DNA from: Pedinophyceae sp. YPF-701
Taxonomy: Eukaryota; Chlorophyta; Pedinophyceae
DNA: 64,000 nt
Direction of reading: 5' to 3'
Assembly: GCA_916048055.1 (NCBI GenBank)
Contig: CAJZHL010000030.1
Span: 1,168,796 to 1,232,795 of the forward strand
This document shows positions 2,814-37,650 of the stretch, one piece after another. Below the pieces are notes generated by a model. The model searched no databases. It was not told the DNA's origin and was given only the letters and a program-made list of their open reading frames with translations. Numbering within the stretch: the stretch's first letter is position 1; each line of letters starts with the position of its first letter. The translations under genes and the position numbers were made by a program.

Positions 2814-5800
2814 ATGGCTCGATTCGCGGCCGCAGCCATCGCCCCCTTGTGGGTCTTTGTCCTCGCGGCCGCGCTCCTCATCGCACGCGCAGAGTCCGAC
2901 ATCAGCGCATTCGCAAGGTGAGACACCGCCCGTTCCACCCCGCCGCTGCGGGTCCGCGTTAGCGCGTCTCGAGACGGCCACGGCGCAGCGCAAACCACAC
3001 ACGCACCATTGCGTCCAGAGCCGCGCCGGGAACGTTCCGTAACATCATTCATTGCCGCCCAGAAGCGCATCATGCGTAAAATATCCTCCTCGGGACGCAG
3101 GTCTCTCCAAACACAGCTGACGGACGTCACGCTGAGCCCTCCAAGCCCGGTGGTGGGAGACGCCCATGGCACCGACGTGGCGCTTTCCGGGGACGGTCTC
3201 GTCGCCGTCGTCGGCGCTCCCCTCCGCGACGGAAACGCCACCGCGGCGGCGGGCCAGTCAGGCGCCCCCGAAGCCTGTGTCCCCGGCTCGCTCTGCAACA
3301 CCGGACAGGTGCGCGCGGCGAGCGCTCCATGCGCAGAACTCCGCATCGGCCCGCGCTCGCCCCCTCACTCATTGCGCGCATCCGCGCACGCCCACCGCCG
3401 CGTCCGTTCGCCCGCGCGAACGGCGCGTTCCAGCGACGTAGGCACCCTGCCAGGGCAACAAGGCCGCGCTATTTCGCCTCGCGGCGGTCGCCCACTCGCG
3501 TCGCGGCGCCGCCCCGCGCCGCGTATCGCGCGCGGAAGCGGGCGGCGCGGGGCGCCGGGCGCGCCGCCACGCGTCCATGCGGGGCCGTGCAGCATTGTGC
3601 ATCTCCCTACGTTTTTCGACCCCACGCGCTGTCCAGCCGCGAATCACGGGCTCATTCGCCCCGCGCCCGGCTCCGTAGACGCTGAGAGGCGCGTTCCGCT
3701 CCCCCGCGTCGCAGGCCGCCGTGTTCCTGAAGAGCAACGGCACCTGGTCGCTTGCGAGCCTTCTGAACGAAACCGTCGACCTGACGGCGCGCGGGTTCAC
3801 GCGCGGGCACTTCGGGGCGAGCGTCGCCGTCAGCAGCGACGGCAGCACCGTCGCCGTGGGCGCCCCGGCGCCGCTGAACGCCACCGCCGCCGGGAATCGC
3901 GCGGGAGTGGTCTACCTGTTTGGCCGGCAGGCGAGTGCCCGTTGTTTGCGCGCGGCGCGGTCCCGCGGGGGGGAATCCGCTCCCAGAACGACGCGTGGGC
4001 GAAATGGACGGGGCGCGTGCGTGCGCGGCCGCGGCGCGCCGTGGCGGCGCGCAGGGCACCGCGCCTGGCCCAGCCATCAGCGGCGGCGGGAATCTCAACG
4101 ACGTGTCCCGATTCCCGCCACCACGAAAAGACCACTCACCCTTGAGCCTTTTCCTGGCCCTGTGCGCGCAGAACTCCACCTGGACGCGCACGGTCGCGCT
4201 CCAGGCCACCACGAACGTGCCGGCCGCCGGCGCCGCCGACGCCTTCGGGGCCGACGTGTCTATCAACGGGGCGGGAACCACCGTCGTCGTAGGCGCGCCC
4301 TCCGCCACCGTGTCCGGCCAGGCCGCCGCCGGCGCGGCGTACATCTTCGCGCTCTCCAACGGCGTCTGGAACATCTCGGCCACGCTGACCGCCGCGACGC
4401 CCGCGAGCGACGCGTCCTTCGGGTCGTCGGTCGCGATCTCTACGGACGGCAACACGATCGCTGTCGGGCAGCCGGGCGCCGCCGGGGCGCCCGCCGGCAC
4501 CGGGAAGGTGCTCGTCTACAAGCAGGTGTCGTCGTCCTGGACGCTCGTCGCGACCGCGACCAGCCTGGGCGCGCGAGGCTTCGGGAACAGCGTGGCCCTC
4601 GACGCGAGTGCCACGCTGCTGATTGTCGGGGCACCGGACACGCCGGAGGGCCTCGTGGCCGGCGCGGGGCGCGCGGAGGTGTTCGCGCTCGGCAGTTCGA
4701 ACTCGCAGACGGTCGCGGTGCCCGTGTTCCACATCGTGCTGCCGTTTGGCAGCACCGCGCTTGGTCTGGGGGACCACGTGGCGGTGTCTGGCGACGGCAA
4801 GGTGCTCGCGGCGGGCGCGCCGGGTGGCACGGGCGCGCTGCTGCTGTTCCGGGAGCACACCGCGACGCGGGGTGTCTGGGCGAGGCTGGACGAGCAGCAG
4901 CCGCCGTCTGGCGGCGGGGCAGCGACCAGGTTCGGAGACAGCGTGTCGCTGAGCGCGGACGGGTCCGACGTGCTGACGGGCGCGCCTGGGTGGACGCCGT
5001 CTTCGTCGCTGACGAGCTCCGGCACCGCGACGGTGCGGAATGTGGCGTCCCTGAGCAGCGTCAACATCACCGCGTTCGCGAAGCCTTTCGACGGCGCTCC
5101 GCTCGCGCTGGGCGGCACGGCGCGTGGCGACCTCGGCCTGTCGATCGCGACGGACGCCTTGGGGGACAGGATCGCCATCGGCTCGGACGTCGGCGTTTAC
5201 ATGTTGCAGAAAACCAACACGTCGGTGTCGTACCTCGGCCGCTTCGACCGCCCCGTCGAGGCCGGCGACGAGTACCGCGTGTGGGCGCTGGAGGCCACGG
5301 CGAACATGGAGTCGCTGTTCGTGGGGTCGAACCTGCTCGACAGCACGGGCGCGGCCACGAACGGGTCGAAGGTGTCGCTGTCGGGGTACGTGGACGTGTG
5401 GCGGTCGCAGGCGAACGGGACGCTGGCGCTGCACCAGAAGATCACGAACGAGGACCTGCGGACGCAGAGCTTCAGGGTGTCGGGCGGGAACCAGGTGCTG
5501 TCGGGCGAGAGGCTGGGCGCGAGCGTGGGCGTGTCGCGGGACGGGGCGTGCTTTGCGGCGGGCGCGCCGGGCTTCCGGACGGCGACGGGGATCCAGGGGC
5601 GCGTGTACGTGTACGCGCTGAACACGACGACGGACGCGTACGTGCGGAGCGCGGTGATCGAGTCGCCGGACCCGTCGGACCGGATGCAGTTTGGCGGGGT
5701 GTGGGCCGGGAGCACGGCGGTGACGACGGGGTGCGGCCGCGTGGCGACGGGGGCGTACTTCCGGACGTTTAACGGGACGCGGTCGGGGTCGGTGTTTGTG

Positions 5801-8800
5801 TACGAGCGCGACGCGACGACGGGCGCGTACGGGAACGCGACGGAGGTGGTGTATCCTGATGCGCAGGCGAACTCGTGGTTTGGGTACGCGGTGGCGCTGG
5901 ACGGCGAGGACCTGTACGCGTCGGCGCTGCGTGTGGACGACGGGGCGACGCCGTCGGCGGGCGCGGTGTACTGGTTTAGGCGCGACAGCGGGACGGGGGC
6001 GTGGACGCTGGTGCGCAACATCACGGCGTCGCCGGGGAGCGCGTCGGGGGAGTTTGGGTCGCGGATCGTGATATCATCGAACCGGCTGCGGATGGTGGTG
6101 GGCGCGAAGAACTACGCGGAGGCGACGAACGGCGACGACAACGGCGCGGCGTTTGTGTTTGAGCGCACGTCGGTGACGGCAGACTGGGTGCAGGTCACGC
6201 GGCTGCAGGCGGGGGCGCCGGAGGACGGGAGCGAGTTTGGGACGGCGGTGGCGATGTCGCTGGACGGCGGGCAGGTGTACGTCGGGGCGTCGTGGTCGGA
6301 CACGGCGGGCATCAACGCCGGCGCCGCCTACGCTTTCGACCGTCGCACCGTGCAGCCTGCGTCCTCCATCACGGACTTCACCCTCCCCATCCCGTTCCCC
6401 CAGAAGCGGGACTTCGCCGGCTACTCGGTTGCGATCTCGAGCGACGGCGCGACGGCCTTCGTTTCCGCGATTCAGGCCGACGGCCTGTTCACCATCGACC
6501 CCTATGCCGACGACATCCTCAGCCGAGGCAGCGCCGATGCCTGCCCCGCCGGCTCCCCGGAGTGCAACCGCGGCCTCGTGTACGTCTTCAGCCTCGTCGG
6601 CGGGCACTGGACGCTCGCGTCCGTCCTCTCCGAGAGAGACGACCTTGTGGCGCGCAACCAGGCCGACGGCGAGTACGGCGTCGGTCTGCGGTGCAGCGCC
6701 GACGCAAGCGTTCTGGCGATCGGGACGCTGCCGGCGAACGTCAGCACGAGATCCGCGATCCCGGGACAGATCTACGTGTACGCCCGGCAGTCGGTCGCGC
6801 CGGCGACGTACGCCCGCACGTCCGTCGTGGAGCCCGGGTCGTACCCGTCCGGATTCGTCGTCACGACCGACTCGGGGAGGGTGTTCGACATCAGCGACGA
6901 CGGGAAGGTCGTCGTCGTGGGCGTGCCTCTCGCGGAGGTGTCCGGCACGGCGAACGCCGGGGGGGTGTTTGTCTACGAGCTGACGGGGGGGGTCTGGAAC
7001 AGGACGACGGCGCTGGCGAGCCCGACGGGCTCCTCGGTCCTGTTCTACGGGTCCTCGGTGGCGATCTCGGACGACGGGAGCACGATCGTGGTGGGCATGA
7101 CGGGCGGCTCCGGATCCGCGGTTGGCGTCGGACGTGTGTTCGCCTACCGCAAGGTGTCCTCGGTGTGGACGCTGGTGGCGACGATGGCGAACGATGCGGC
7201 GCAGGACTTTGGGCGGGCCGTGGCTCTGGATGCGACGGGCAGCCGGGTGGCGATCGGCGCGCCGCTCACGAGCTCTGGTGTTGGTTCCGTGGACGTCTTT
7301 GCTCTGTTGAGCTCGAACTCGCAGACGGTGGCAGTTCGGCTGGCGACGCTGACGGCGTCCACGTCGGCGATCCGCAACCTCGGAGAGGCTGTGTCGATGT
7401 CGACCGACGGGAAGGTGATTGCGTGTGGCGCTCCGGGCGGCTTCGGAGCCTTCGTGGTGTTCCGAGAGTACGACGCAGTCCGCGGACTGTTCGCGCGGGT
7501 CGAGGAGCAGCCCGTCACGGACCCCGGCGCCGACGCGGGCGAGTTCGGCCGTGCTGTGGCTCTGTCCGGCGACGGCAACCATGTGGTGGTTGGCGAGCCT
7601 GGGAGGGTGCAGACGCTGTTGATGGGCAGCGCCGGTGCTGCGTCCGTGCGCGTCGTCGGGCGGCTGTCGACGCCGAACACCTTTGCGCTGCCCAGCAGGG
7701 GAGCGCCGCTGGCCCTCGGCGCATCGCCTCGCAACGACCTCGGTCTGTCGGTCGCCACGAACAGCTTCGGTGACAGAATCGCCATCGGCTCGGACGTCGG
7801 GATCCAGCTCCTGCAGAAGGCCGGCAACACTGTGTCGTACCTCGGCCGCTTCAACCGCCCCGTCGAGGCCGGCGACGAGTACCGCGTGTGGGCGCTGGAG
7901 GCTACGGCGAACATGGAGTCGCTGTTCGTGGGGTCGAACCTCCTCGACAGCACGGGCGCGGCCACGAACGGGTCGAAGGTGTCGCTGTCGGGGTACGTGG
8001 ACGTGTGGCGGTCGCAGGCGAACGGGACGCTGGCGCTGCACCAGAAGATCACGAACGAGGACCTGCGGACGCAGAGCTTCAGGGTGTCGGGCGGGAACCA
8101 GGTGCTGTCGGGCGAGAGGCTGGGCGCGAGCGTGGGCGTGTCGCGGGACGGGGCGTGCTTTGCGGCGGGCGCGCCGGGCTTCCGGACGGCGACGGGGAGC
8201 CAGGGGCGCGTGTACGTGTACGCGCTGAACACGACGACGGACGCGTACGTGCGGAGCGCGGTGATCGAGTCGCCGGACCCGTCGGACCGGATGCAGTTTG
8301 GCGGGGTGTGGGCCGGGAGCACGGCGGTGACGACGGGGTGCGGCCGCGTGGCGACGGGGGCGTACTTCCGGACGTTTAACGGGACGCGGTCGGGGTCGGT
8401 GTTTGTGTACGAGCGCGACGCGACGACGGGCGCGTACGGGAACGCGACGGAGGTGGTGTATCCTGATGCGCAGGCGAACTCGTGGTTTGGGTACGCGGTG
8501 GCGCTGGACGGCGAGGACCTGTACGCGTCGGCGCTGCGTGTGGACGACGGGGCGACGCCGTCGGCGGGCGCGGTGTACTGGTTTAGGCGCGACAGCGGGA
8601 CGGGGACGTGGACGCTGGTGCGCAACATCACGGCGTCGCCGGGGAGCGCGTCGGGGGAGTTTGGGTCGCGGATCGTGATATCATCGAACCGGCTGCGGAT
8701 GGTGGTGGGCGCGAAGAACTACGCGGAGGCGACGAACGGCGACGACAACGGCGCGGCGTTTGTGTTTGAGCGCACGTCGGTGACGGCAGACTGGGTGCAG

Positions 8801-10236
8801 GTCACGCGGCTGCAGGCGGGGGCGCCGGAGGACGGGAGCGAGTTTGGGACGGCGGTGGCGATGTCGCTGGACGGCGGGCAGGTGTACGTCGGGGCGTCGT
8901 GGTCGGACACGGCGGGCATCAACGCCGGCGCCGCCTACGCTTTCGACGAGCGCGCCTCTCTCCCGGTCACCACCGGCCCCCCCACGACCGTTGGCCCCGT
9001 ACCGACGACCGTCGCCACCAACCCTCCTTCCGCAACCAACGCCCCTGGCAGCGCGGCGACGCAGGCGCCTGCCGTCGCCACCACTGCGCCGCCCACCTCT
9101 CGCATTGAGGTTACCATCGGCCTGTCCTCGCCAACCGACGTATCCGCAGCCACCCTGACGTCAATCGAACAAGAGATCTCCGGGAGACTCGGCATCGCGT
9201 CTAGCCGCGTCAGCGCCCGCGTCCAGGCGCGGCGCCGCCGCGTCAGCGAGAGCGCCCGCGCCCTGCTGGTCGTCGGCACGGCGATCATTGCCACGGTCCA
9301 GGCGGAGAGCACCGCGCAGGCCCAGACCCTCAACACGCAGCTGCAGTCTGCCGTCGACAACGGGGCCCTCAGGACCGCCGTCGAGGCCCTCGGCCTGCCC
9401 GTTGCCAACATCGGCACGACCGTCGTCGCGCCCACGAACGTCGGCACGGCCGCACCGGCCGGTGGCGACGGGCTGAGCACCGGCGCGGTGGCCGGCATCG
9501 TGGTGGCGGCGGTGATCGGCAGCGTGGTCATCATCGGCGTCATCGTCGCTGTGGTGGTTGTGTCGTCGCGGAAGAAGAAGGATGCGTTCGCCAAGGAGGA
9601 CAACTTCGACACGCTCAGCGCGGGCCTCCCGAAGCTGGACTGGGTGATGGAGAAGGACGCGAGGGCCAGCACCGACCAGGAGGGGAAGTTCACGGAGAGC
9701 GCTTCGGGCTTCGGAACGTCGCTGCCGCCGGCCGTCTCGGAGTACGCGGCTACCGACAACGTCACGGCCAGCATCGTGCCCCGCCCGGAGTTGGCGTTCC
9801 TCAAGGTGAGCCCGTTGTGTACCTGCCCGGCCCACCAAACTGCACAGGTGTTGGTTTAGCGACCTTGCCGCCGCCCGCGGTGGTATATAGCAGCCGCGCA
9901 GACACGTCTGTGCACAGCATGTGGAGGGCCGCGCCTGGTTGCGACCTGGCTGATTTGCCGGCAAGTTGACTCCCCCCCCTCACCACTGCGAGCGCTCCAC
10001 CGTGCCCCCCACAGGAGAAAGCACGGGCACAGGAAGCCCGGCTCGCAGCTGGAGGCGGAACCCCAGGCAAAGACGGCAGGATACAGGCCTCTGCGGCTCA
10101 GAACAAGCCCAACGACGGGTCGGCCACGGGCAGCGGGGCCACGAACCAGGGCACCGCGACGGTGCAAGGCTCCTCGGCGGGGGGGTCGGGCACGACTGGG
10201 CCAAGCACAGAGGCGCACGCCCAGCCCGACGCGTGA
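2814..10236 (+). CDS. giant FG-GAP (integrin-alpha-like) type I membrane protein, five exons
   Basis: Exons 2814-2917, 3101-3308, 3715-3930, 4172-9805 and 10015-10236 join in phase to 2127 residues. The ATG at 2814 opens a classical signal peptide (MARFAAAAIAPLWVFVLAAA). The ectodomain is a long array of FG-GAP repeats, seen as recurring FG-S-V-A-I-S-x-DG and VGAP motifs ending in VY-V/I-F, the blades of integrin-type beta-propellers. Residues ~182-899 and ~1051-1768 are two copies of an 869-residue unit. A Thr/Pro stalk (~1769-1821), a globular juxtamembrane domain (~1822-1936), a transmembrane helix (~1948-1975: GIVVAAVIGSVVIIGVIVAV) followed by SSRKKK, and a ~150-residue Gly/Ser/Thr-rich cytoplasmic tail complete it. 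Many N-x-S/T sites fit secretion. Intron 3 starts with GC. By family, such proteins bind surface or matrix ligands; the ligand here is unknown. Confidence 0.85.
3931..4171 (+). other. GC-AG intron (FG-GAP gene, intron 3)
   Basis: Donor CAG|GCGAGT and acceptor GCGCAG|AAC, phase 0 on both sides. The join gives YLFGRQ-NSTWTR, restoring the repeat pattern seen in the other FG-GAP blades. No GT donor in the region keeps the frame. Confidence 0.8.
5225..6340 (+). repeat. homogenised block, copy 1 of the internal tandem duplication
   Basis: This 1116-bp stretch recurs at 7832-8947 with a constant offset of 2607 bp (869 codons) and no indels. I find five substitutions by eye (5246, 5296, 5335, 5592, 5999). 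Outside the block the two units still align as proteins but are strongly diverged. Confidence 0.93.
7832..8947 (+). repeat. homogenised block, copy 2 of the internal tandem duplication
   Basis: Partner of 5225-6340, about 99.5% identical. The edges are sharp: left of 7832 the copies differ in many codons, and right of 8947 the sequence moves at once into the Thr/Pro stalk, while copy 1 continues into another FG-GAP blade. Confidence 0.93.
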
Positions 10237-11075
10237 GCGCGAGCGCGAGCGCGCGCCACTCCCGCAGGCCCCATCTCCTACCCCCCACGTCGCCCAAGAG
10301 ACACCCTGTGTTCCAGAGCAAACAGCGCTCGAGCGTCCAAGACTTGGCGCGCAGGCGACCCTATTTCCCCGACGGGCTTCGCAGCGCGCCCCGCCCGTGC
10401 GCCATCTGCGCATGCGGATCATCCCCGGCTCCTTGTTGCCCCGCCCACCTATTTGACCCTTCAGATAGGAGGGCAGCGAGCCGCCGCGACGTACGTGCCG
10501 CGCCGTGGTGCCTCGCTGCCCAGGACACAAGCAGCCACGACGGGACCAGTCCTTTGCGCTCGATGAACTCGACTAGTTTCCCGTCTTAATGCAGTCTAGC
10601 GAATGTATGTCCTCGCATCTGTTCTAGAATTCGTCGAGGTGTTGTGACACGCTACAGCAGCTTGACGCCTCACAGTCTCCGCGCGGCTCTCAACTGGTCT
10701 CAGCGCATGGCTCGAGCTGGCGCAATGTCGGGGCCGCGGGCATCCTTTCACGAGCACTTCGCGGCTGTCGCTGCTCATGGCCACCCCGTTTCTTGGCTGT
10801 TGTGCTGGACAATCAGCCTGACGAAACGTGTCAAGCCGGAGGTCACGTTGAGCGAGGAAAGGGGTGGCCGAGAGCAACGACGCGGTCGAGACCTTCGTGA
10901 CACCAACGTCCTGTCCCAACTTCCGCGCCAGGACACGCACCCCCGCTACGTACCAGTCGGCGACCACTCGCGCTCCCTCTCGCGCCGAGCTACGGAGCGC
11001 ACACAAGCCGCGCAGCGTCGGACACGCCGCGACAATGTTTGCACCGACTCTCAGGTCACAGCGCTCCTCCGCGCA
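10237..11075. other. convergent intergenic region
   Basis: Lies between the 3' ends of the FG-GAP gene (+) and the ciliary-type gene (-). No supported gene. It contains a dispersed repeat at 10803-10878 that recurs inverted at 28862-28938. Confidence 0.55.
10803..10878 (-). repeat. dispersed repeat A, copy 1
   Basis: The reverse complement of this ~76-bp stretch matches 28862-28938 with a few small differences, sharing CTCTCGGCCACCCCT at one end and GTCAGGCTGATTGTCCAG at the other. Both copies are intergenic. Confidence 0.8.
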
Positions 11076-19126: not shown

Positions 19127-20860
19127 ATGGGGATGTGGGACGCGTATTTGCGTTACAGCGAATGGCTGGCCCGCAAGATGGTCGCTCTCCCGTTTCCGGA
19201 GTGGCTGACCAAGTTGTCGTACGGCATCGGGCACACCCTCAACAATGCCTTCCAGTGAGTCCGAACCCCGCCCCTCTCGAGCCCGCCCGCGCCCCACCCA
19301 GGCCGTTGGTTGGCCCGCCTCTGCGTGCCCGGCACGCGCGCTGCGCGAGATCGGCGCCCCCGGCAGGCAAGCCCACGGTGCGAGGACCGAGCCGCGTGGC
19401 CCGGGCGCGCGTTTCCGTGCAGGCTGACTCAGGACGAGAGCACTGGGAGGCGGTACATCATGCTCTACTTCCTCGTCCTGACTCTGGGCATGGTGCTGCT
19501 CATTGCGCACCAGATCGGCGCCCTCTCTCCGGTCAAGCTCAAGGAGACCTGGATCGGGCCGTGGGTGTTCATCTACAAGGAGGTCACGGTGCGGCCGCCC
19601 CTGTTGTTGGCGGGGGCAGTTGACCGCCGGCGGGGCCCGCGCCGTCAACGAAACCGCGGTTATCGTCCGTCGGATCCCGCTCAAGTTGTGTAGCTGCGAC
19701 TCTGATGCGTCCGGAACGATCGCGCAGGCCCCGCTGCCACGCGACTCCCCCCCATCGATCCTGCTGAGGCTCTTTGGTCGCGCAGGGGCCGTACAAGAAG
19801 ACCGCCAAGGTGATGGACGAGGTCATGAACGACTACCGCGAGTGGTACAACAACGAAGACGCGCTCAGGCGCAGCAGGCGCGAGGGAGAGACAGAGGAGG
19901 AGGCCGCGGAGCTACGCGCAGCCGAGCTCGCCGAGACCGACCCCGACACCGACAAATTCGGTGCGCGCCGCGCACCCACCACGCGCACCAGCCCCACGAC
20001 CCGTCGCGAGCCGACACCGCCGTGCAGCGCCGCTTCGCGCCACGCGCTGCGCTGTTGTTGTCGTGTGCACACAACGCGTCGTTTCTGCCGCCTTGGTGGC
20101 CGGTTGCGCCGCTGCTGTCGGCGGGCGGAGCGCGTGACCGTTTGGGCGCGTTCGGGCGCGCTGGCGCTCCGCAGGGCTGTATTTCGACAACCCCCGGGAG
20201 GTGAAGAACCCGGGGCGGCTGCGGTCGCTCGCGGGCGTGGCGGTGAACCTGAACGCGATCGAGCTGAAGCGCGAGGCGCGGGAGAACAAAGTGACCGTCG
20301 AGGAGGTCCTGGAGGACATGCGCAAGCTCCACAGGCACGCCCCCGCACGCATTAACCCCCCTCCCCCCCGCGGCGCGCGTCGGGGCGCCACCGCGCCAGC
20401 CCACCGCACGCGCCGTCCGGCGCCGCCTGAAGCGGGCGCTGGAAACGCCGGCAGCTCCGAGCCAGCCGGCGCGGCCCGGCGCGCCACGTCAACGCGCACC
20501 CGCTCACTGCTTGTGCGCGCGCGCTCGCCGCGTCGCCCGCGCAGGCGGCCCGCGTACATCAAGGAGAAGGGGTACAAGGTCCGCGCGCTCGGCATGACCA
20601 AGGTCACGAAGGTCGACTTCCCGATCTTCTGGCTGCCGGTCTCCGCGTTCCTCGGAATGCTAAAGGTTTACCCGCGGCTGGCGCCCGAGGCGCAGCGCGT
20701 GATGAAGACGCCGGGGATCTTCGAGTTCTACTGCACGCACCCGGACAAGAACGTGATTGTGTACGCCGTGCCGCACGAGGAGCGCAAGAGCATGACGCCC
20801 TTCGCCATCCCCGTGGAACACCACGAGGGCGAGCAGATGGAGAGCCGCAAGGACAGGTGA
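19127..20860 (+). CDS. TEX264: TEX264-like ER membrane protein (GyrI-like domain)
   Basis: Exons 19127-19254, 19423-19588, 19786-19960, 20175-20334 and 20545-20860 join in phase to 314 residues. After a short amphipathic N-terminus comes one membrane helix (~54-72, YIMLYFLVLTLGMVLLIAHQ). An acidic linker leads to FGLYFDNP (~156), equivalent to the YYDNP motif of human TEX264, then KEKGYKVRALGMTKVTKVDF and ...LKVYPRL...PGIFEFY, which follow the order of the TEX264 GyrI-like domain (KFGFKVFSFP, RRVHPAL, YPRLEIY). TEX264 is an ER-phagy receptor and adaptor at the ER surface in animals. The C-terminal tail here is short and basic/acidic without a clear W/F/Y-x-x-L LC3-binding motif, so the autophagy role is uncertain. 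Intron 4 starts with GC. Exon 2 could end at 19582 instead (also in phase). Confidence 0.8.
20335..20544 (+). other. GC-AG intron (TEX264-like gene, intron 4)
   Basis: Donor CACAG|GCACGC, acceptor CGCGCAG|GCGG, phase 2. Removing 210 nt (70 codons, frame stays open if unspliced) joins MRKLHR to RPAYIKEKGYKV. The removed stretch is Pro/Arg/Ala junk with no counterpart in the family. Confidence 0.75.
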
Positions 20861-21136: not shown

Positions 21137-23202
21137 TCACAGCACGACGCGCTCCGAGCCGCCCCCCGTCGACGTCCGGCGCCCCCCGCGCGCTGCAGGA
21201 TTCCGGGTCGCTGCGCGTCGCGCGGAGGCCTCCGCGGCCTTCTCCGCGGCCCGCGGGATGTTCTCGAAGAGGTAGTGGCTCACGCCCCACTGGTTCCCGT
21301 TGTCGTACTTGAAGAGCTCCGCGCAGGCCATGTAGAACAGCCTCCACCGCACCATCCACTTGAGGGCGTTTTCTTCTCCGTAGGTCTTCGCGAAGATGTC
21401 GAGGACGGAGCTCTGGACCTGGTCCTGGCGGCGGAGCCAGTCCTCGAGCGTCCAGGCGTAGTGCCGGCCGTTCACGCGCCAGTGCTTGGCGCAGGTCAGA
21501 TGCTGTTGGAAGTGCAGCAGGAGGTCGTGCGAGGCCATGGTGCCGCCGGAGAAGAAGTAGCGCGTCATCCAGTCGTCGGGGCCGTTGTCTTCGAAGTGGT
21601 AGTTGAAGTCCTTGTGCGTAAACATGTGCACGAAGAGCTTGCCGCCCGGACGCAGCCACTTGGAGATGCGGCCCAGCAACTCCCTGCGACGCAGCAGGCC
21701 CCGGCGCGCAGCCGTCGCGAACGGCCCCCGCGCACGCGCAGACAAACGCCCCAGCATGCGCGGCAACAGACGGCGCAGGCCGCATGTCACGAGTGACATT
21801 TCTTTCTTTCTTTAGTCATAAATATAGTCGTGATTAAATCTAATTGATTATATCTAATTGAATAAATATGGTGATAGGTTCGCACCTGTAGTTCTTCATG
21901 TGCTCGAACATCTCGACCGACACGACGCGGTCGTACCCGCCGTCGCTCGCGGGCGGCTCGAAGTGCGTCACGTCGTCCGTGATGATCTTCACGTTCGTCA
22001 GTCCCCTCTCAATTGCGCGCCCCTCAATGAACTCCCGCTGCGTGCGCGAGTTGCTCACCGCCGTGATCGTCGCGGACGGGAAGCTCTCCGCCATGAAGAG
22101 CGTCAGCGAGCCCCACCCGCACCCGAGCTCCAGGATGTCCATTCCGTTCTTCAGCTCCGCGCGATCGCAACACATTTGCAGCATCGCCTCCTCGGCGATG
22201 TCGAGCTGCGTGCTCGGATCGAGCCCGGGGTAGTACCCGGACGAGTACTTCAGTTGCGGGCCGAGCACGGCCAGAAAGTACTCCGTCGGCAGCTCGTAGT
22301 GTTGCTCGTTGGCGTCGGCGGTGTTGATGGCGACCGGCAGCGACTTGAGCTCCTCAACGAACTCCTGCGCGCCCGCGGCGTCGCGTCCGGGATGTTTGGG
22401 ACTGGCGGCGCCGCGCGCGGGCTCGCGTTGGAGCGGGGCGATCGCGTATCGTGGGCTGAGGGGAGCGGTGCGCAGTGTGTGGGGCCGCTGGGGGCGTGGA
22501 GCGGGCGGGCGGCGCGGGCGGAGCGCGGGCGGGGGCGTGCCTGTTTCGCGGCGATCTGCTTGTCGACGTCGCCCCCGTGCGAGCACTCCTCGAGCCGCTT
22601 CGCCAGCAGGTACCTGGGAGCATCACAGGCGGGAATGTGGGCAATTACGCGACGGCTTGCACAGAACGCGCGCATCAGAGCATGTATGGTGCATATAGAG
22701 GCCTGGAAGGGCGGCGAAACTCCGCGAGATGCGGTGTGCTGGGCGCACGGACGGATTGACCGTGCTGGGAATAGGGGCGCCGCGGGCGCTGGTGGGGCCC
22801 CTGGTGCGGGCACGAGGGATCTGAGACGCTTCTCCGCGATGAAGCGACGACGATGACGTGCTGCACCGAGGAGAAAAACGGCGCGGCGGCGCCCGTCGCG
22901 GCCGGTGTTCACTCTAGCGTGTGACCACGGCCGCCAGGGCGTGCGACACGCGTCCCTGGCGACCACAATCACCCCAGGGCTACCGCCGCTACACTAACAT
23001 ACACTGCCGGCGGAACGGGCCGCCGCCTCGCGGCGCGTCGCCGCCCCTGGTCCATGCGGTGTGCTGGCAGACATGAATTGGTGTATCGCGGCGCGATGTC
23101 CGGGTCGCACCTGATGCCGCGGCGCACGATGAAGTCTGGCACGACGTTCTTCTCCACCAGCTCGACGCTCTTCGCGAACACGGCATCGTATAGGGACCCC
23201 AT
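21137..23202 (-). CDS. coclaurine N-methyltransferase-like / cyclopropane-fatty-acid-synthase family enzyme
   Basis: Exons 23111-23202, 22541-22613, 21886-22364 and 21137-21683 join in phase to 396 residues. The class I SAM-binding motif is LELGCGWGS (~133-141). Family hallmarks follow in order: QHYELP...YSSGYY, AMLQMCCDRA, VISVEMFEHMKNY-like VVSVEMFEHMKNY, LRPGGKLFVH, DDWMTRYFFSGGTM and KHWRVNGRHYAWTLEDW. These match the plant coclaurine N-methyltransferase-like branch, which uses SAM to methylate amines; the related bacterial enzymes cyclopropanate phospholipid acyl chains. The real substrate cannot be told from sequence, and an alga need not make benzylisoquinoline alkaloids. The C-terminus carries a ~30-residue basic Ala/Arg extension. 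Intron 2 starts with GC, and intron 3 holds an AT-rich patch. Confidence 0.87.
22365..22540 (-). other. GC-AG intron (methyltransferase gene, intron 2)
   Basis: Donor AAACAG|GCACGC, acceptor GCGCAG|GAGTTC, phase 0. The join gives QIAAKQ-EFVEELKSLPVAI, continuous with the family; no GT donor nearby keeps the frame. Confidence 0.82.
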
Positions 23203-23986: not shown

Positions 23987-25235
<1,249 letters not shown>

Positions 25236-25586: not shown

Positions 25587-28087
25587 ATGGGGGCGTATCT
25601 CTCGCAGCCGGTCACGGAGAAGGAGAGTGGGAACCGAAGGGATGCGCGCTTCGACGGAGGATACTCGGCCATGCAAGGCGAGACCGCCCGCCCAGGCGCC
25701 CGAGCACCAAAAATCCCGCCGAGCGATCCGCGCCGGCCGGCGTCGACGCTCCGGCCCGCGACGCACGCGGCCACTTGCAGCCTGCCCCACCAGCGCGCTC
25801 GCGCCGGGGGCGCCTGGAGCCGGCGTTCCGCGGCGCTCGCGCCCCCACGGCCCGCCTCTCATCGCCTCGGCCTCCTCCCGTTCACCCCCCCCTCCTCTCC
25901 CCACCCGCTGCGATCCTGACCGCCCCTAACCGAAAAGCTGGGGCCGCAGCCCTCCACTGCGCCCTGCCCTACTCGCCCTGAGTAGGAGCGATCCCGAGCC
26001 CCGCCCCGCGCAGCCGCCCCGCCGCACCGCACGCTGCGCGCCGGCGCGCTCGCGCCCCCGGCGCGGCGGCTGCGCTCGTTGCCTGCAGTGCCAGCGAAAC
26101 ACGAGAGGCGCGCTCGTACGGCCTCCGCCGCGCCGCGCCCGGGCGCCCGCACCGGTCCTCGCACGACCGCCCTTCCCGATCCGCGCGCGAACGTCCAGAC
26201 CGGGCCCCCAGCGCCGCGTGAGGCCGCACAGGCGCTTTGCCTGCCCACCTGCCGCGCCGCGCGCTGCGGGCCCGTGCGGGGCCGCAGCGGCCCCCCAGCC
26301 GCTGTACGTAGGTAGAGGACATCGAACCACCCCGGCCGCGCCCGTTTCTCGCCCCTCGTGGCCGGGCTCGCCCAGCCCGCGCCTGGCCCGGTGCCCTCGC
26401 ACCTCCGCCGCCGCCACGCCGCGCATGCGGGCGCTTCCGCGGCGCCCGCGCTGCAACCCGGACCCTCTAGATCCCGGCCACCGTTCACGCGCGCCCGCAC
26501 TCCGCGTCCGCCTCCGTGCGGCTCGGATTCGGGCCATTGCGCTCGATCTGCGCCGTTCAGCACCTTGGCAACCCCTCCGCGCCGCGCCGCGCGCGTCCCC
26601 GCGCGCCCCCTCGCTCCGCATCGACCGCGCGCCCCCTCGCGGCCCCCCCCGCGCCGCCTCGCGGCCGCAGGCCGCCTCCACCGCCCCCCGCGCGCCCGCT
26701 CCCCCACCGCCGACCCCTCCGCCTCCCCGCGCCGCCCTCCGCAGGCTGGCGAACCAACATGGAGGACCAGCACCTCCTCGAGCTCAACATCGACGACCGC
26801 GGGACGGCCGTGTTCGGCGTCTTCGACGGCCACGGCGGCCAGGAAGTAGCACATTTCGTGGAGCGACACCTGGTGGAGGAGCTGCGGGCGACGCCGGGGT
26901 ACGGGAAGGGGGAGTTCGACGCGGCGCTGAGGGACGCGTTCGTGCGGCTGGACCAGCGGATGTGCACGCGCGAGGGCTGCAAGGAATTAATGACCTACAG
27001 GTGCGTGTGTGTGTGTGTGTGTGTGTGGGTGTGCAGCCTGCGGTGCTGCGCGTGCGGTGTTGGGCGCGCGCGCGCGGCGGGGGTCGCCTGGGACGGCGTC
27101 GGCGGCACGGGGGGTGTTTTTGGCGAGTCAGACAGAGACGGTGGTGTCAGTGTGTGTGTGGTTGAGGGTGTGTGCAGGGCCAAGGAGGACTCGGAGACGG
27201 AGGGGTCCGGGGGCGGGCCGCGCGAGAACCAGCTGATGGCGCTGATCAAGCAGCAGCTGGGCGCGAAGAGGGCGGCGGGGGGGGAGGACCAGGACGGCGA
27301 CGGGAAGTACGTCATCACCCTGGGGCAGGGCGGGCAGGGGGGGCTGCAGCTGACGGCGGTGCGGGACCTGGGGGAGGGCGCGGGGGGCATGGACGACGAC
27401 GACGACGACGAGCGCGGCACGGACGTGACGCTCGAGGCGCCCGGCGGCGGCGGCGGCGGCGGCGGGGGGGACATGGACCTGGGGGGCGGGCGGTTCGTGG
27501 GCATGACGGACCCGGACGACGGGCCGCCGGGGGAGGTCGAGCCGCCGAGCGCGGCGGGGTGCACGGCGGTCGTGGCCATGGTCACGCCCGAGAACGTGCT
27601 CTACGTCGCCAACGCGGGCGACTCCCGGGCGGTGCTGTCGCGCAACGGCGTCGCCGTGGCGCTCTCGGTCGACCACAAGCCGGACGACGAGGAGGAGCAC
27701 AGCCGCATCATCGCGGCGGGCGGCGGCGTCATCGACGGCCGCGTCAACGGAAGCCTCAACCTCTCGCGCGCGATCGGGGATCTGGAGTACAAGCGCAACC
27801 GCCGGCTGCCCGCGGACAAGCAGATCGTGACCGCGGTGCCGGACATCCGCCGCGAGCAGCTCACGGCGCAGGACGAGTTCATCATCGTGGCATGCGACGG
27901 CATCTGGGACATTCTGGAGAACCAGGATGCTGTGGACTTCGTGCGGGAGCGCCTGCAGCGCGGAGTGGACACGGAGACGATCTGCAAGGAGATGTGCGAC
28001 CGCTGCCTCGCGCCGGACACGCAGGGGACGGGCAAGGGCTGCGACAACATGACGGTGGTCGTCGTCAAGCTCAATATCAAGACCTGA
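25587..28087 (+). CDS. PPM1G: PPM1G-like protein phosphatase 2C
   Basis: Exons 25587-25677, 26745-27000 and 27178-28087 join in phase to 418 residues. The N-terminus MGAYLSQPVTEK keeps the MGAYLSQP signature and the Gly-2 of PPM1G/plant PP2C proteins (myristoylation is possible). Metal and catalytic motifs are complete: GWRTNMEDQH (E37/D38), FDGHGG (~57-62), NAGDSRAVLS, DGRVNGSLNLSRAIGD, ACDGIWD and GCDNMTVVVV. A Gly/Asp-rich acidic insertion (including a poly-Asp and a poly-Gly run) sits between the first catalytic block and TAVVAMV, the same place as the acidic insertion of animal PPM1G. The family removes phosphate from Ser/Thr using Mn/Mg; PPM1G works on nuclear splicing and histone substrates, which is inference here. 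Intron 1 is GC-AG and unusually long (1067 nt); intron 2 begins with a (GT)n run. Confidence 0.9.
25678..26744 (+). other. GC-AG intron (PPM1G-like gene, intron 1), 1067 nt
   Basis: Donor ATGCAAG|GCGAGA, acceptor CTCCGCAG|GCTGG, phase 1. The join SAMQ-GWRTNMED reproduces the conserved SMQGWR-x-MEDAH block, fixing both sites. The intron is C-rich with no gene inside. Confidence 0.92.
27001..27029 (+). repeat. GT microsatellite at a donor site
   Basis: Run of GT dinucleotides directly after donor CAG|GTGCGT of PPM1G-like intron 2; the rest of that intron is also GT-rich. Confidence 0.7.
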
Positions 28088-28861: not shown

Positions 28862-28938
28862 CTGCTCTCGGCCACCCCTCTCCTTGGTCACTGTGACCTC
28901 TAGTTTGACGTTTCACGCTTGTCAGGCTGATTGTCCAG
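28862..28938 (+). repeat. dispersed repeat A, copy 2
   Basis: Matches the reverse complement of 10803-10878 over ~76 bp; lies 67 bp after the last repeat B copy. Confidence 0.8.
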
Positions 28939-32400: not shown

Positions 32401-33144
32401 GGTTGCCGCCCGTGTCTGCTGTCTGCTCGCGCTGCAACGCACGTGCTCCGCACTCAGGCGCGGTCAGGTGCCCACCGGCCCCCCTGCGCGCTGCACTGCA
32501 ACTGTCACTGCAGGGTTTGAATTTGATCGGGGCGGACCGCGTCGTGGTGTTCGACCCGTCGTGGAACCCCGCGGCGGACGCGCAGGCCTTCGACCGCGCG
32601 TTCCGGATCGGGCAGCAACGCGACGTGCAGGTGTTCCGCCTCGTGGCACGCGGCACTGTAGAGGAGGCGCGGTACGCCAGGCAGGCAGGTGCCCCTGCGC
32701 TGCGCGCTGCGCGCCGCACTCGCGACCCTCTGCGCTGTCAGCGGCGCGTGGAGCGGGGGTCGCTGTAGGCCGCGTGGTTGCGTTGCGTATTGCGCGGTTC
32801 CTTCTTCTTCGCCGCGAGCGCGCAGCGGCTCGTTCATCTGCGCGCGCGTGGCTTCGTGGACGCAGATATCCAAGTCGAGGCACGCGGCGATCGCGATGCC
32901 CGGCGCCGGCCCCGCCGGCCAGGGCGGCGAGTACGCGCCCGCGGGGCTGTTCGCGGGGCAGGCGCCCGAGGAGCGCTTCGACGCGACGGACAAGGGCGAT
33001 CTGTACGGCTTGGCCTCGCTGCTCAGGGAGGCGCGCGACCGGGCGTGGGAGGGCATCAGGGGGGGTGTGTTGCGCCACGCGGAGCAGGCGGGCGAGGGGG
33101 CGCTGCAAGTGACGGGCGCGGGGTGGACGCAGCGGAAGACGTAG
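29410..33144 (+). CDS. ERCC6L2: SNF2-family DNA-dependent ATPase, ERCC6L2-like
   Basis: Exons 29410-30047, 30140-30441, 30655-32042, 32166-32306, 32514-32684 and 32866-33144 join in phase to 972 residues. The N-terminal ~300 residues are disordered with two short repeats ([26 protein letters not shown]) and an acidic Ser/Asp patch. The helicase core starts at [12 protein letters not shown]; Walker A is DDMGLGKT (~332-339), the DEVH box is [12 protein letters not shown] (~455), and LTGTLMPN is motif III. Lobe 2 has [27 protein letters not shown] and [13 protein letters not shown] (motifs V and VI). After it, [12 protein letters not shown]...[16 protein letters not shown] matches the post-helicase segment of ERCC6L2 (YLRQIYKQQ...GELFGIHNLF). 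ERCC6L2 acts in repair of DNA breaks and transcription-linked damage. A Cys/His-rich insertion (HMCECGW ... CPGC) in lobe 1-2 linker may bind metal. Intron 5 starts with GC. Confidence 0.85.
32685..32865 (+). other. GC-AG intron (ERCC6L2-like gene, intron 5)
   Basis: Donor AGGCAG|GCAGGT, acceptor GACGCAG|ATATCC, phase 0. The join [12 protein letters not shown] matches the Q-I-x-K of ERCC6L2. The nearby GT (GCAG|GTGCCC, 4 nt later) would put the next exon out of frame. Confidence 0.7.
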
Positions 33145-33397
33145 CGTGCGGCCGGGGGGAGAGGAGCACGCGTGGTGTGATGTGGAGCCGGCTAACATTG
33201 AGAGGCACGTGTGGTTGTCCCAAATACGCCAAATGCGCCACCTGGCAACGAGGTCTCTGGCCAGGATTCGAGGGGCGAGGCAGCTCAGCGGAGCGCCGGG
33301 TCACAGGGGCGAGTCTGGTGCTGGCGGCGGCGTCGCGTTCTCTCGTCCCTGGTGCCAGCACTGTCGTTGACAAAAACACTCGAGTTTTGCTATCTAT
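33145..33397. other. convergent spacer, SNF2 gene to kinesin gene
   Basis: 253 bp between the two stop codons; no feature seen. Confidence 0.4.
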
Positions 33398-36300
33398 CTA
33401 CTTCTTCTTGAGAGGGGTTCCGGCGCTCTTCTTCACGTTCTTGCTCGCCGTCTTCATCTGGCAGCCGTTCACCTTCTCCCCGAACCTCAAACTCGACAGC
33501 GTCTCCGGCGCCGACTCCGCCTCCGAGCTCACGTTCAAGAACCTGCAATGCAAACATATATCATATTATATCACTATAATATCAAACAAATAGATTATCC
33601 TAGCACGCCAGCACCCTTGCACGACCGTCCCGCGGCGGCACGATCGAGGCGTGGGACGCCACGCGCGGTGACCGCTCGAGCGCATCATAGTCGACGCAAC
33701 GAGGGACGTAGTGCTGTCAGCAGACAATTGTCTGCGAAACGTCCTGCGGTCGTGCGTCGTGGCGATCCGCGAGCGGTGCGGGGGCGCACATGAGCGTCTT
33801 GCTGTCCCCGCCGAGCGCCGGCATCAAGAGGTGCGTCAGCTTGCTGTTCCGGTACGGCACGTGCGCCCGCTTCTCCGCCAGCGCCGTGATCACGTCCCCG
33901 AGCGCCGACAGCGACTTGTTGATGTTCTGCGTCTCCGTCAGCGTCGACCCCGTCGCGCCGGACCGCGCCAGGCGCTCCGAGCCCGCCAGATCCACCAAAT
34001 TGAGACACCCATGCACTTCTTGTCCAAGACTCGGGTTCTTCCCAACGAGCTTGACCATGAAGACGCAGTGCGAACGCGACGACTGGTCGTTCATGTTGGT
34101 GCTCGCGACCGCGCGCGCGCGCATGGCCCGCCCCACGAGGTCCTCGGCCTGCTCCGGGGAGCGCACCGACACTTGCGTCATGTTGGTGACCGTGGTCAGG
34201 CCCGTGGTGTCGTCGTGGACCACCTTGGCGTCCCCGAGCTTCACCTCCGCGCCCTTGCGCGCCAGGAGGTCCCTGCGCACCACGCCAGCGCAACACGCAC
34301 GTCGTTGAGTCCATGCCACGGGAAATAACCAAGACCTGGGTTCGTTACGCCATCTCGGCCGCGACGTCCGCGCGCCGCGCACCTGTACTGCTCGTTGTAG
34401 ACCTCGAGCATCATCGCCGACACGTCGTACGACCAGCCCTGCTCCGCCAGCACCTGGCTCTGCGCGAACACCTGACGCATGGCGCGCGGGACCATCCCCG
34501 GGTCCTCCTCCGTCCCAAGCATCGTGTGCGTCTTCCCGGACCCCGTCTGCCCGTACGCGAACACGCAGACCTTGTACCCGTCCAGGCTGCTCTGCACCAG
34601 CTGACCGATCTCGTCATACACCTCCCCCTGACTCGACCCCGGCCCAAACACCTTGTCGAAGTCGAACCTGCGAAACCGAACACGGAACACACCCAAAATT
34701 TCTCGCATCTGTGCAGCCACGACCCCGCCGCCGTCGCCGTCGCGTGGGGCGGCGAGCGCGCACTCACTTGTGGGTCTGCCCGCGATACTTGGCGTCCGTC
34801 GTCGGCATGCTGATGTCGATCCCGGCCTCGGCGCGCTCCGTGTTCGCCGGGAACGCCAGCGTCGGCCGCGCCCCGTCCACCTCCATCCCGTCCGCCGCCG
34901 GCCGCGCACGGCAGTACACGCGGATGTTTCCCTTCAGCTCCTGGATCGTGTTGTGCAGCCGCCGCCGCACCGCCTCGCCCTCCTGCACGCGTCCCTGCAG
35001 CCGCGCGACCTCCTCTTCCAGCGACCCCGCGCGCGCCTCGAGCGTCCGCACCGCGCCGGCCTTCATGCCCACCTCCTGCTCCGACATGAGCTGCCGCTGC
35101 TGCAGGACCTGGAGCTCCTCCTTGAGGCTCGCGACGACCGAGGCGTTGTCCTGGGACTCGGCCTCGAGGGCCTCGCGCCGCGTGCGCATGCGCTCGAGCT
35201 CCTGCTGGGTCTGACTCGAGGCGTTCCGCCAGCGCAAGAGCTCCTCGTCCAGCGACGCCAGCTTCGCGTCGGCCGCCGCCTTGCCCTGCACGCGGTGAGC
35301 GATCGAACCGATGTCTCCTCGGAGAGCGATTCGTCGCCGTCGTCGACGACGGCGCGCTGGTGGTTGACGGGGCGCGGCGGCGAGCTGCGGACGATCAAAC
35401 GCAAATGCGCAACGCAGCGTGTGTTGCGCTCTCGCGCCGCCGCCCCTGTCCAGCGGCCCGGCCCCGGCGCTCAGTGCACGCCAGGGACATCGCCGATTAC
35501 GACATGGCGACTTCTACTTCATCGCAGACGCGAAAGTAGAAGTCGCCATGTCGTAGTCGGCAATGTCCCAGGCGTACTCTGAACGCCGGGGCCGGGCCGC
35601 TTGGGCTGCTGCCGCTGCGGCGGCACTGGTGCGTCGGAGCACGACAGCACGGCCAGCAGGAAAGCAGCGGCGCAGCGACGTCCGGTCTGACCAGTAGTAG
35701 TGCCACAAAACACACACCCCCCCCCCGCTCTCTTACCTTCGTGAGCGCGAGCACCTCCTGCTTCGCCGCCTCGCACTCCGCCTGCACGCCCGCCCGCGAC
35801 GTCTCCAGCATCGCCTTCTGGTCCCGCAGCTCCGACACGATGCCCCCGAGCTCCTCCTCGCGCGCCGCCGCCGCCGCCGCCTCCCTCGCCGCCTGCGCGC
35901 GCGCCCGCTCGCCGCCCGCGCGCTCCTCCCGCAGCGCGTCCTCCGCGCGCGCCCTCCCCTCGCTGCTCACCCTCAGCGCCGCCTCCACCTCCAGCAGCCG
36001 CGCCTTGGCGCCGGACAGCTCGGCGCTCACCGCCTCGAGGCGCGCCGCCGCCCCCGACGCCGCACTCGCCGCCGCCGCCCCTCCTGCGCCGCGCTCCAGC
36101 GCCCGCGCCTGCTCCCGCAGCTCGACCTCCTCCTGCGCCGCCGCGCCCCCGCGCCCTCCAGCGCCGCGCTCGCCGCCGCGCACTCCGACCGCGCCGCCGC
36201 CGCGCCGCCCTTCAGCTCCGCCGCCTCCTCGATCAGCGCGCCCTTCTCCGACTGCAGCCGCGCCAGCTCCCGCTGCAGCTGCGCGTTCTCCGACTGGAGA

Positions 36301-37650
36301 CGCGCCGCGAGGTCCTGCAACGACGTGGCGTACTCCTGCGTCTTGTGCCCGGCGGCGCGCGCCTCCGCCAGCGCCGCCTGCGCCGCCGTGGCGTCCTGCT
36401 GCGCGCGCTCGCGCTCCGCCGCGACGCGCTCGATCTGCGCGGCGAGGTCCGCCTTCGCGCGGTCGCGGTCCGCGACGTCGGCGATCAGGGCCGCGCCGCG
36501 GCGCTCCGCGGCCTCCGCGCGGGCGGTGGCGTCGCTCAGCGCGCGCTGCAGCGCCGCGGCTTCGCTCTTGAGCGCCCCGAGCGCGCGCTCGGCGGCCTCC
36601 TGCTGTTCGGCGCGGTGGCGCATCGCGTCGGTCTCGCGGGCCTCGGCGCTGTCGGCGCGCTCCTCCGCGAACGCGAGGCGGTCGTAGTGGTACCGCGTGC
36701 AGGCGCGGAGCTGCCGGATGTAGTCCATTTGCTGCGTGATCTTGCCCTTGAGGTCGAACTTGCTTTTGCCCGTCATCTTCAGCGCGAGCAGGTCCGGAAC
36801 GGTCATGCCTGCGCCCGGAGGTTGTGTGCGAGAGGGGCGTCGTGTGTGTGCCGCGGCGCGCGCGTCAGGTGCCTGCGTGTGTGTGTGTGTGCTGGCGTGC
36901 CTGTGATCGCAACGATGTCCTCCCAGGAGTCGCCCCTGCGCTCCTCCGCTGCGGCGGTGGGCTTGGTGGCTGTGACGACCGCGGCGGTGCGCTTGGAGCG
37001 CGTGGACCGCGGCGTCGGTCCGGGTGGGGGGCCGCTGGGGCTCTTTCGCTTCGCCCCGACCGGCGAGCGGTCCGCGGCCTCGCCCTGCGCGTAGCGAGAC
37101 AGAGATTCCGTCGAGGTGGGCCCGTAGGCGGGGAATTGCGCGGGAAGTAAGCGGAGAAAAGCGGCCGCACTGCAGCGGTGAGTGAAGGAGCCTCCTTGCG
37201 CTGAGACGGCGCGTTCGAGGACGGATGCGATCTCGAAAGGCACTGAAAAGCACGCTGATCACTAGTACATGCGTTCCGCGGTGCGTGGTGAGCGCTGCGG
37301 GCGCTGGAGGGGCCGGTGCGGGGGGCGCGGCTGCGCTGGCTCGTCGCGCCAGGTGGCCACGTACGCGCCCGGTGCAGCGCTGCGGGACCGTCATCGCGGG
37401 CGCGGACTGTGCACTACGACGTTGTCCAGAGAAAGAGCGTTTTATTTCGGGGCGAGGCGCCCTTTCGTGCCAGCATTCCGCGGCAGAAGCGCGTTGTTGA
37501 GTGCCCAGGCATCTTCCGCGGCGCGCCCGCGCACGCGTCGCAGTTCGGCCGACTCACGTTGACGTCCTTGAGTTTGAGAGGAGACGGTCCTGCGAAACGT
37601 GGAATCCGGGATCCACGGACCCCAGAGCCGGGCCCGTCCCCGGTGTTCAT
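33398..37650 (-). CDS. kinesin-14 (C-terminal motor kinesin)
   Basis: Exons 37558-37650, 36901-37084, 35737-36808, 34768-35285, 34383-34667, 33790-34272 and 33398-33542. The protein (~926 residues) starts [19 protein letters not shown], has a basic disordered tail, a long Ala/Glu/Arg coiled coil, and then the motor at the C-terminus, the order that defines minus-end-directed kinesin-14. The neck [13 protein letters not shown] leads into the motor; P-loop [11 protein letters not shown], switch [14 protein letters not shown] and switch [10 protein letters not shown] are intact, as are [10 protein letters not shown] and [21 protein letters not shown] basic tail ([13 protein letters not shown]) ends it. 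The role in spindle or cargo movement is by family. Within exon 3 the frame breaks by one missing base near the C-run at 36146-36150 (exon length 1072; 1071+2 would fit), so the annotated exon contains a frameshift. Intron 2 is GC-AG; intron 3 holds a large hairpin. Confidence 0.88.
35453..35600 (-). repeat. long inverted repeat (hairpin) inside kinesin intron 3
   Basis: Arms 35453-35519 and 35534-35600 are both 67 nt, with a 14-nt loop and no gaps; I count 61 of 67 complementary positions. On the transcribed (minus) strand three of the six mismatches become G-U pairs. Weaker complementarity continues outside both arms. Confidence 0.88.
36809..36900 (-). other. GC-AG intron (kinesin-14 gene, intron 2)
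   Basis: Donor ATCACAG|GCACGC, acceptor GGCGCAG|GCATG, phase 1, joining SWEDIVAIT to [16 protein letters not shown]-rich, with (GT)n runs. Less constrained than the others because the N-terminus is poorly conserved. Confidence 0.65.

What the first reader, a model, noticed from the sequence alone, without database searches (positions are those of the whole stretch)
3931..36900. GC-AG introns are unusually common (7 of about 46 placed introns)
Seven introns in seven genes begin with GC: 3931-4171, 20335-20544, 22365-22540, 24405-24498, 25678-26744, 32685-32865 and 36809-36900. Each keeps the frame, and in NDUFS8, the PPM1G-like gene, the methyltransferase and the ERCC6L2-like gene the join falls inside a conserved protein block, so the sites are fixed. 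About 15% against roughly 1% in most studied genomes suggests relaxed or altered 5' splice-site recognition. Standard gene finders that force GT would mis-model these genes.
Basis: partly seen in the sequence, partly recalled or inferred. Interest (0 to 1): 0.85.

Follow-up and report, generated by a model that had tools for sequence, protein, structure and literature searches.

The report
Frequent GC-AG introns in a pedinophyte
In this very GC-rich green alga roughly one intron in eight appears to start with the letters GC instead of the usual GT; the flagged sites hold up, but the effect is already known from other GC-rich algae and appears to need no altered splicing machinery.

Summary
The window (71% GC) ends contig C30 of a 27.9-Mb genome. 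One window protein matches, at 100%, a protein of Pedinophyceae sp. YPF-701 (= Akinorimonas japonica) on a contig of the same length. The deposited proteins of three window genes use the GC-AG introns at 22365-22540, 32685-32865 and 36809-36900 (3 of their 14 introns). Solved homologues or Pfam support 24405-24498, 25678-26744 and 3931-4171. Only 20335-20544 rests on coding signal alone. A gene finder run with GC, or any of 11 decoy dinucleotides, beside GT on the window plus 20 ten-kb stretches kept 20 GC donors against 112 GT and 2-6 per decoy (mean 3.9). Outside the window: 14 of 107, 11-16% after decoy correction by threshold. A 71-kb hold-out gave 2 GC of 27, one duplicated intron, no better than its best decoy (3).

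The one U1 found has the canonical 5' end, U6 keeps ACAGAGA, and no U12 was found. GC donors are stricter than GT donors (-2A 20 of 20; +3A 10 of 20 v 14 of 112). Likely mechanism: T-to-C drift at +2, tolerated where the rest of the site is strong. Aureococcus, Micromonas pusilla and Emiliania show more. New member of a known kind.

The parts
3931..4171 (+). GC-AG intron in an FG-GAP repeat gene (CAG|GCGAGTGCC)
   Evidence: loss 7.5 when forbidden; FG-GAP_2 43.1 bits spliced at GC versus 30.0 in the GT-only model
20335..20544 (+). GC-AG intron in an unidentified gene (CACAG|GCACGCC)
   Evidence: coding signal only, loss 6.9 when forbidden; no Pfam family; weakest of the seven
22365..22540 (-). 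GC-AG intron in a cyclopropane-fatty-acyl-phospholipid-synthase-like methyltransferase gene
   Evidence: deposited protein P0001 (396 aa, 100% identical) needs this join; loss 9.0 when forbidden
24405..24498 (-). GC-AG intron in the NDUFS8 (complex I 23-kDa subunit) gene
   Evidence: join inside an ungapped conserved block in solved homologues; Fer4 55.5 bits in 2 stretches versus 37.2 in 1 with GT-only splicing
25678..26744 (+). GC-AG intron in a PP2C-type phosphatase gene (CAAG|GCGAGACC)
   Evidence: join inside an ungapped conserved block; PP2C 36.0 versus 30.6 bits
32685..32865 (+).
   Evidence: deposited protein P0121 (972 aa, PF00176 and PF00271) needs this join; my gene finder had missed it
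36809..36900 (-). GC-AG intron in a kinesin gene (CACAG|GCACGCC)
   Evidence: deposited protein P0241 (PF00225) uses the same join, in a different frame from my model; loss 8.4 when forbidden

Best explanation
These are ordinary U2-type introns of a green alga whose sampled DNA is about 70% GC. Mutation pressure turns T into C at donor position +2. The unchanged U1/U6 machinery tolerates the +2 mismatch where the rest of the donor is strong (AG before the join, R at +3 with A enriched, G at +5), so about one intron in eight now carries GC. Shown: the joins (six of the seven with support beyond coding signal), their share against decoys in the sample, the canonical U1 and U6, and the stricter flanks of GC donors. 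Inferred: that splicing occurs in the cell at these sites, and that base-composition pressure with weak selection, rather than selection for GC, set the share.
For: Junctions: deposited proteins, PDB alignments, Pfam scores for GC versus GT-only splicing (BMT5 115.1 v 88.5, kinase 66.1 v 44.1, ferritin 62.1 v 51.9). Share: 20 GC and 112 GT at net evidence 4 or more, 11 decoys 2-6 each, mean 3.9; outside the window 14 GC of 107, Wilson 8-21%, decoy mean 2.7, max 5. Flanks: -2A 20 of 20 v 89 of 112 (p 0.02), +3A 10 of 20 v 14 of 112 (p 4e-4); mean Watson-Crick pairs with U1 excluding +2: 5.80 v 4.96 (p 8e-4); mean duplex energy -4.6 for GC donors, -6.6 for GT donors, -3.7 for GT donors with +2 set to C in silico. 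Canonical U1 and U6; no U12 found. No family of repeated GC introns. Intron interiors are 39% C against 16% T. Known precedent in GC-rich genomes (PMC3033335, passages).
Against: No RNA reads were available, and what evidence the deposited annotation rests on was not seen. The hold-out of 22 loci gave only 2 GC of 27 at net evidence 4, both the same duplicated intron, while one decoy (GG) reached 3: on its own it does not show an excess. Genome GC content alone does not predict the share: Micromonas RCC299 (64.1% GC) has 1.5-2.7%. The ab initio set contains false calls: homology contradicts one weak GC call (L018:9136-9212, Prenyltrans 122.7 bits with GC v 137.5 without), and L018:8347-8754 looks like two fused genes. 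-1G, +5G and +4A did not differ significantly between GC and GT donors. The causal claim about mutation pressure was not tested directly.
Confidence: 0.8

Rival explanations
1. The GC donors are carried by repetitive introns (introner elements) that spread with a GC donor, as in Micromonas pusilla.
For: In M. pusilla CCMP1545, 79% of GC donors lie in D-IE1 introns (PMC4815162, passages). Four of the seven window donors share CAG|GCACGCC, and 5 of 7 occurrences of CAGGCACGCC in 264 kb are called donors.
Against: All-against-all blastn of 183 introns gave 13 hits. The strongest are among three GT introns of one stretch (89.6% over 125 bases, the other two pairs 72-73%); GC introns share only weak or short stretches (69% over about 130 bases, 79.5% over 44, 100% over 18). 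The likeness of the window donors ends 7 to 12 bases into the intron. Only this sample was compared, not the whole genome.
Confidence: 0.05
2. Altered 5' splice-site recognition: a changed or second U1, or changed U1-C/U6 partners, reads GC as well as GT.
For: A GC share well above 1% with a partly distinct donor motif (ACGC at +3 to +6: 6 of 20 GC v 5 of 112 GT, p 0.002).
Against: One U1 above cut-off, with canonical 5' end; next match 13.6 bits. U6 ACAGAGA intact. GC donors have extra U1 pairing elsewhere, which a GC-matched U1 would make unnecessary. Residue-level changes in U1-C, Prp8 or LUC7 were not examined, and only 41 of 363 U1 candidates were scored.
Confidence: 0.08
3. Many of the GC introns are modelling artefacts: coding read-through, other frames, assembly indels or misplaced GT introns.
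For: Decoy dinucleotides also attract 24-43 calls when allowed, and the 48 raw GC calls include weak ones. In the hold-out GC (2) does not exceed the best decoy (3). 20335-20544 is 210 bases long, open in frame and without homologue support. In the kinesin gene my 62-base GC candidate 36133-36194 is read through in P0241.
Against: Six of the seven reported sites have support from homology or deposited proteins. In the main sample well-supported GC calls exceed every decoy by more than threefold (20 v at most 6).
Confidence: 0.07

Closest known systems
GC-AG introns of Micromonas pusilla CCMP1545 (regular spliceosomal introns)
   Same: GC-rich green alga; 9.7% GC donors in regular introns, 25.6% overall (PMC4815162, passages); donor consensus AG|GTGCGT (PMC3879977, passages), close to CAG|GTGCGC here.
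   Different: Most of its GC donors sit in introner elements; no such family was seen in the sample here. It belongs to another class, Mamiellophyceae.
GC-AG introns of Aureococcus anophagefferens and Emiliania huxleyi
   Same: A very high GC-donor share: 39.6% in Aureococcus, genome 69.5% GC (PMC3033335, passages), and 50% in E. huxleyi (as cited in PMC4815162), whose assembly is 65.67% GC (PMC8379373, passages).
   Different: Not green algae (recalled), and a higher share than here.
Rare GC-AG U2-type introns of mammals and plants
   Same: The rest of the donor adheres more closely to consensus, apparently compensating the +2 change (said of GC donors in PMC2490688, passages).
   Different: About 1% of introns there, against roughly 11-16% in the sample here; the consensus here has C rather than A at +4.

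Membership tests
U2-type GC-AG introns | GC at +1/+2 and AG at the 3' end, with the join fixed by protein | tested here: met
   six of the seven sites, not 20335-20544
U2-type GC-AG introns | Stricter consensus at the other donor positions than in GT introns | tested here: met
   -2A 20 of 20 v 89 of 112; +3A 10 of 20 v 14 of 112; more U1 pairs excluding +2; -1G, +4A and +5G not significantly different
U2-type GC-AG introns | Handled by the major spliceosome | tested here: inconclusive
   U1, U2 and U6 found, no U12 found; no splicing assay
U2-type GC-AG introns | Spliced in RNA at the GC donor | not testable with these tools
   no transcript reads; deposited proteins are indirect support
GC-donor-rich, GC-rich algal genomes | High genomic GC and a GC-AG share several times above 1% | tested here: met
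   GC 71.3% in the window, 69.5% in the 20 stretches; 14 GC of 107 outside the window, decoy mean 2.7; the small hold-out alone does not show it
Introner elements (Micromonas type) | Many introns with high sequence identity to each other | tested here: not met
   13 hits among 183 sampled introns, none a near-identical pair involving a GC intron
Altered U1 recognition | U1 5' end complementary to GC | tested here: not met
   one U1 above cut-off, canonical AUACUUACCUG
U12-type introns | U12 snRNA present and RTATCCTT-like donors (donor motif recalled) | tested here: not met
   no U12 match at E 10, 42 of 72 candidates scored; the 20 well-supported GC donors read AG|GC[AG][AC]G with one exception at -1

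The most novel reading that the evidence does not exclude
The GC donors are not only decayed GT donors but a partly separate functional class with its own motif (CAG|GCACGCC), read by a protein or regulatory factor in this lineage, and so kept rather than merely tolerated.
Probability: 0.06. Interest if true: 0.6.

Novelty: new member of a known kind. Interest (0 to 1): 0.33.

Why it matters
It adds a core-chlorophyte lineage to the short list of eukaryotes with many GC-AG introns, and here, as far as sampled, without introner elements. That makes pedinophytes a cleaner case for asking whether base composition alone can push +2 from T to C and how the rest of the donor compensates. It also warns that GT-only gene models of such genomes drop conserved protein segments; the deposited annotation of this alga already allows for it in the three genes checked.

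Tried and rejected
Tried: an unsupervised intron model with free dinucleotides and no anchor slipped three bases and reported CG-type donors; I dropped it and re-anchored on GT. Leave-one-out with all 16 dinucleotides open gave small losses for most introns, I think because neighbouring registers substitute; there GC fell from 28 calls to 6 at loss 4 and to none at loss 8 (GT 209 to 133 and 35), and the script ended in a division error after its main table. I replaced it by one extra dinucleotide at a time. The raw EM share (44 GC of 271) is inflated by false calls and is not used as the estimate.

Rejected or weak GC calls: L018:9136-9212 (prenyltransferase score is higher without it); L018:8347-8754 (joins a prenyltransferase-like segment to what reads to me as a complex-I subunit, probably two genes, the second label from recall); window 36133-36194, 37085-37470, 39562-40101, 38322-38371, 41860-43281, 1490-1750, 2192-2684, 17074-17224, 48856-49089 and 57525-57969 (net evidence below 4). 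P0241 places a GT intron, 37085-37557, where my model had the GC candidate 37085-37470. Two pairs (L024 and L022, YIPF5-like and topoisomerase-VI-B-like by recall) gave no usable Pfam comparison. In the PRP1_N pair the two segments differ in length, so only profile coverage (from 2 v from 52) is informative, not bits.

Organism guesses from memory (Prasinoderma and others) were dropped once named the source. An SSU rRNA search was tried twice and not answered.

Literature limits: the nuclear genome paper of YPF-701 (recalled: Repetti and colleagues, New Phytologist 2022) did not come up and was not read; whether it mentions GC donors is unknown. Searches for GC donors in algae. Ten papers were seen as passages only (PMC7072748, PMC4815162, PMC3033335, PMC8379373, PMC7455551, PMC12574857, PMC2490688, PMC10581693, PMC3879977, PMC2483917); others only as search listings.
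Full report
What the window is. The window is C30:1168796-1232795, the end of a contig in a 27.9-Mb genome of 32 contigs. It is 71.3% GC; 20 stretches from other contigs are 69.5%. A window protein is 100% identical to a deposited protein of Pedinophyceae sp. YPF-701 on a contig of 1,232,795 bases, the length of C30. NCBI places it in the green algae, core chlorophytes, class Pedinophyceae; the strain was recently described as Akinorimonas japonica (PMC12574857, passages).

The seven introns. All seven intervals start with GC and end with AG on the coding strand. Three are used by the deposited annotation: the proteins P0001, P0121 and P0241 need joins whose only GT/GC-AG solutions are 22365-22540, 32685-32865 and 36809-36900, all GC-AG; these three proteins need 14 introns, 11 GT and 3 GC. 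These genes were chosen because they held a reported GC intron, so 3 of 14 is not an estimate of the share. P0241 uses the kinesin join in a different reading frame from mine, which suggests that the join came from transcript evidence rather than protein matching (inference). Two more are fixed by solved homologues: the NDUFS8 join lies in an ungapped block, as does the PP2C join. The FG-GAP join raises FG-GAP_2 from 30.0 to 43.1 bits. The join at 20335-20544 has only coding signal; the intron is 210 bases long and open in frame.

How common GC donors are. I wrote a simple gene finder (coding and non-coding Markov models, donor and acceptor matrices, explicit intron lengths) and ran it on the window plus 20 ten-kb stretches from six other contigs, 264 kb in all. 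With a uniform prior over all 16 dinucleotides and flanks learnt from GT introns, it chose GT 153, GC 32, then CC 11, of 271. Because such a finder makes false calls, I allowed GC or one of 11 decoy dinucleotides beside GT, one at a time, and asked how much score is lost when each called donor is forbidden, net of its prior. At net evidence of 4 or more: GT 112, GC 20, decoys 2-6 (mean 3.9). Outside the window: GT 93, GC 14, decoy mean 2.7 and maximum 5, that is 13% raw (Wilson 8-21%) and 11% after subtracting the decoy mean; at the other thresholds tried 13-16% after subtraction. A hold-out of 22 loci (71 kb; L035 left out as the same gene as L034) gave GT 25 and GC 2, the two GC being the same intron in a duplicated light-harvesting gene; one decoy, GG, reached 3 there, so this small set alone shows no excess. 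So 'about 15%' is of the right order; 8-16% is my range.

Homology outside the window. Splicing at the GC donor rather than the best GT-only alternative raises Pfam scores for ferritin (62.1 v 51.9), BMT5-like (115.1 v 88.5, two GC introns) and protein kinase (66.1 v 44.1), and extends PRP1_N coverage from profile position 52 back to 2. The kinase join lies in a nearly ungapped block against a chain that includes a NEK-type kinase, with a single one-residue gap some ten residues upstream of the join. One weak GC call is contradicted: L018:9136-9212 lowers the prenyltransferase score (122.7 v 137.5). Two pairs gave no usable comparison.

How it most likely works. One U1 match passes the Rfam cut-off, starting AUACUUACCUG; the next match has 13.6 bits (41 of 363 candidates were scored). 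U6 has the ACAGAGA box, U2 is present, U12 was not found (42 of 72 candidates scored), and U1-C, SNRNP27 and a Methyltransf_10 gene are present. Hence no sign of changed recognition by RNA. Among the well-supported donors, GC sites have -2A in 20 of 20 (GT 89 of 112, p 0.02), +5G in 20 of 20 (GT 106 of 112, no significant difference), and +3A in 10 of 20 (GT 14 of 112, p 4e-4); leaving out +2 they form more Watson-Crick pairs with U1 (5.80 v 4.96, p 8e-4). The matrix used to find them favours +3G, so the +3A excess is not produced by the method. In silico, GT donors with +2 turned to C pair with U1 at -3.7 kcal/mol on average, true GC donors at -4.6, true GT donors at -6.6. This resembles the compensation described for GC donors in PMC2490688 (passages). 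Intron interiors are 39% C and 16% T, so drift at +2 would run from T to C. Mutation pressure with tolerated, compensated +2C is the simplest reading; that composition is the cause is inferred.

Rivals. Repetitive introns, the main source of GC donors in Micromonas pusilla, are not seen: 183 sampled introns gave 13 mutual hits, the strongest an 89.6% identical pair of GT introns, none a near-identical pair involving a GC intron. A partly distinct motif exists: ACGC at +3 to +6 in 6 of 20 GC and 5 of 112 GT donors (p 0.002), and CAGGCACGCC occurs 7 times in the 264 kb, 5 of them as called donors. With 20 sites this cannot be told apart from compensation at +3 plus C-rich composition.

Known context. 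GC-AG introns are 39.6% in Aureococcus and 22.2% in M. pusilla, both GC-rich; Chlorella 7.7%; Micromonas RCC299 2.7% (PMC3033335, passages). M. pusilla has 25.6% overall, 9.7% in regular introns, and E. huxleyi 50% is cited there (PMC4815162, passages). The GTGCG donor consensus with C at +4 is also known from Micromonas and Ostreococcus (PMC3879977, PMC2483917, passages). The finding is therefore real and was well observed, but is a new member of a known kind. Whether the paper on this genome already reports it could not be checked: it did not come up in the search.

Noticed in passing
window 36133-37557 (kinesin gene, - strand): The deposited protein P0241 reads the first exons in a frame different from the one with coding signal and joins my frame near 36133; an annotation error, a missed short intron or an assembly indel could explain it.
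   Followed up: partly
window 5128-6340 and 7735-8947: Two 1.2-kb segments, 97.5% identical, inside the same FG-GAP repeat gene, as from a fairly recent internal duplication or gene conversion.
   Followed up: partly
G000 C2:736444-736989 and C5:1110392-1110937 (L039, L040): What looks like the same light-harvesting gene, with matching intron ends including a GC donor, lies 23 and 16 kb from the ends of two contigs in opposite orientation, suggesting a duplicated contig-end segment.
   Followed up: partly
G000 C3:2163957, 2167104 and 2169455: Three equally scoring Chloroa_b-bind matches within 6 kb, probably a young tandem array.
   Followed up: no
donors of the 264-kb sample: Donor position +4 is C in 85 of 112 well-supported GT introns although a Methyltransf_10 gene (a broad family that, by recall, includes METTL16) and SNRNP27 are present; in yeasts METTL16 goes with +4A over +4U.
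   Followed up: partly
L027:+ donor-like site at 8113: A further CAG|GCACGCCCC occurrence that is not among my called GC donors.
   Followed up: no
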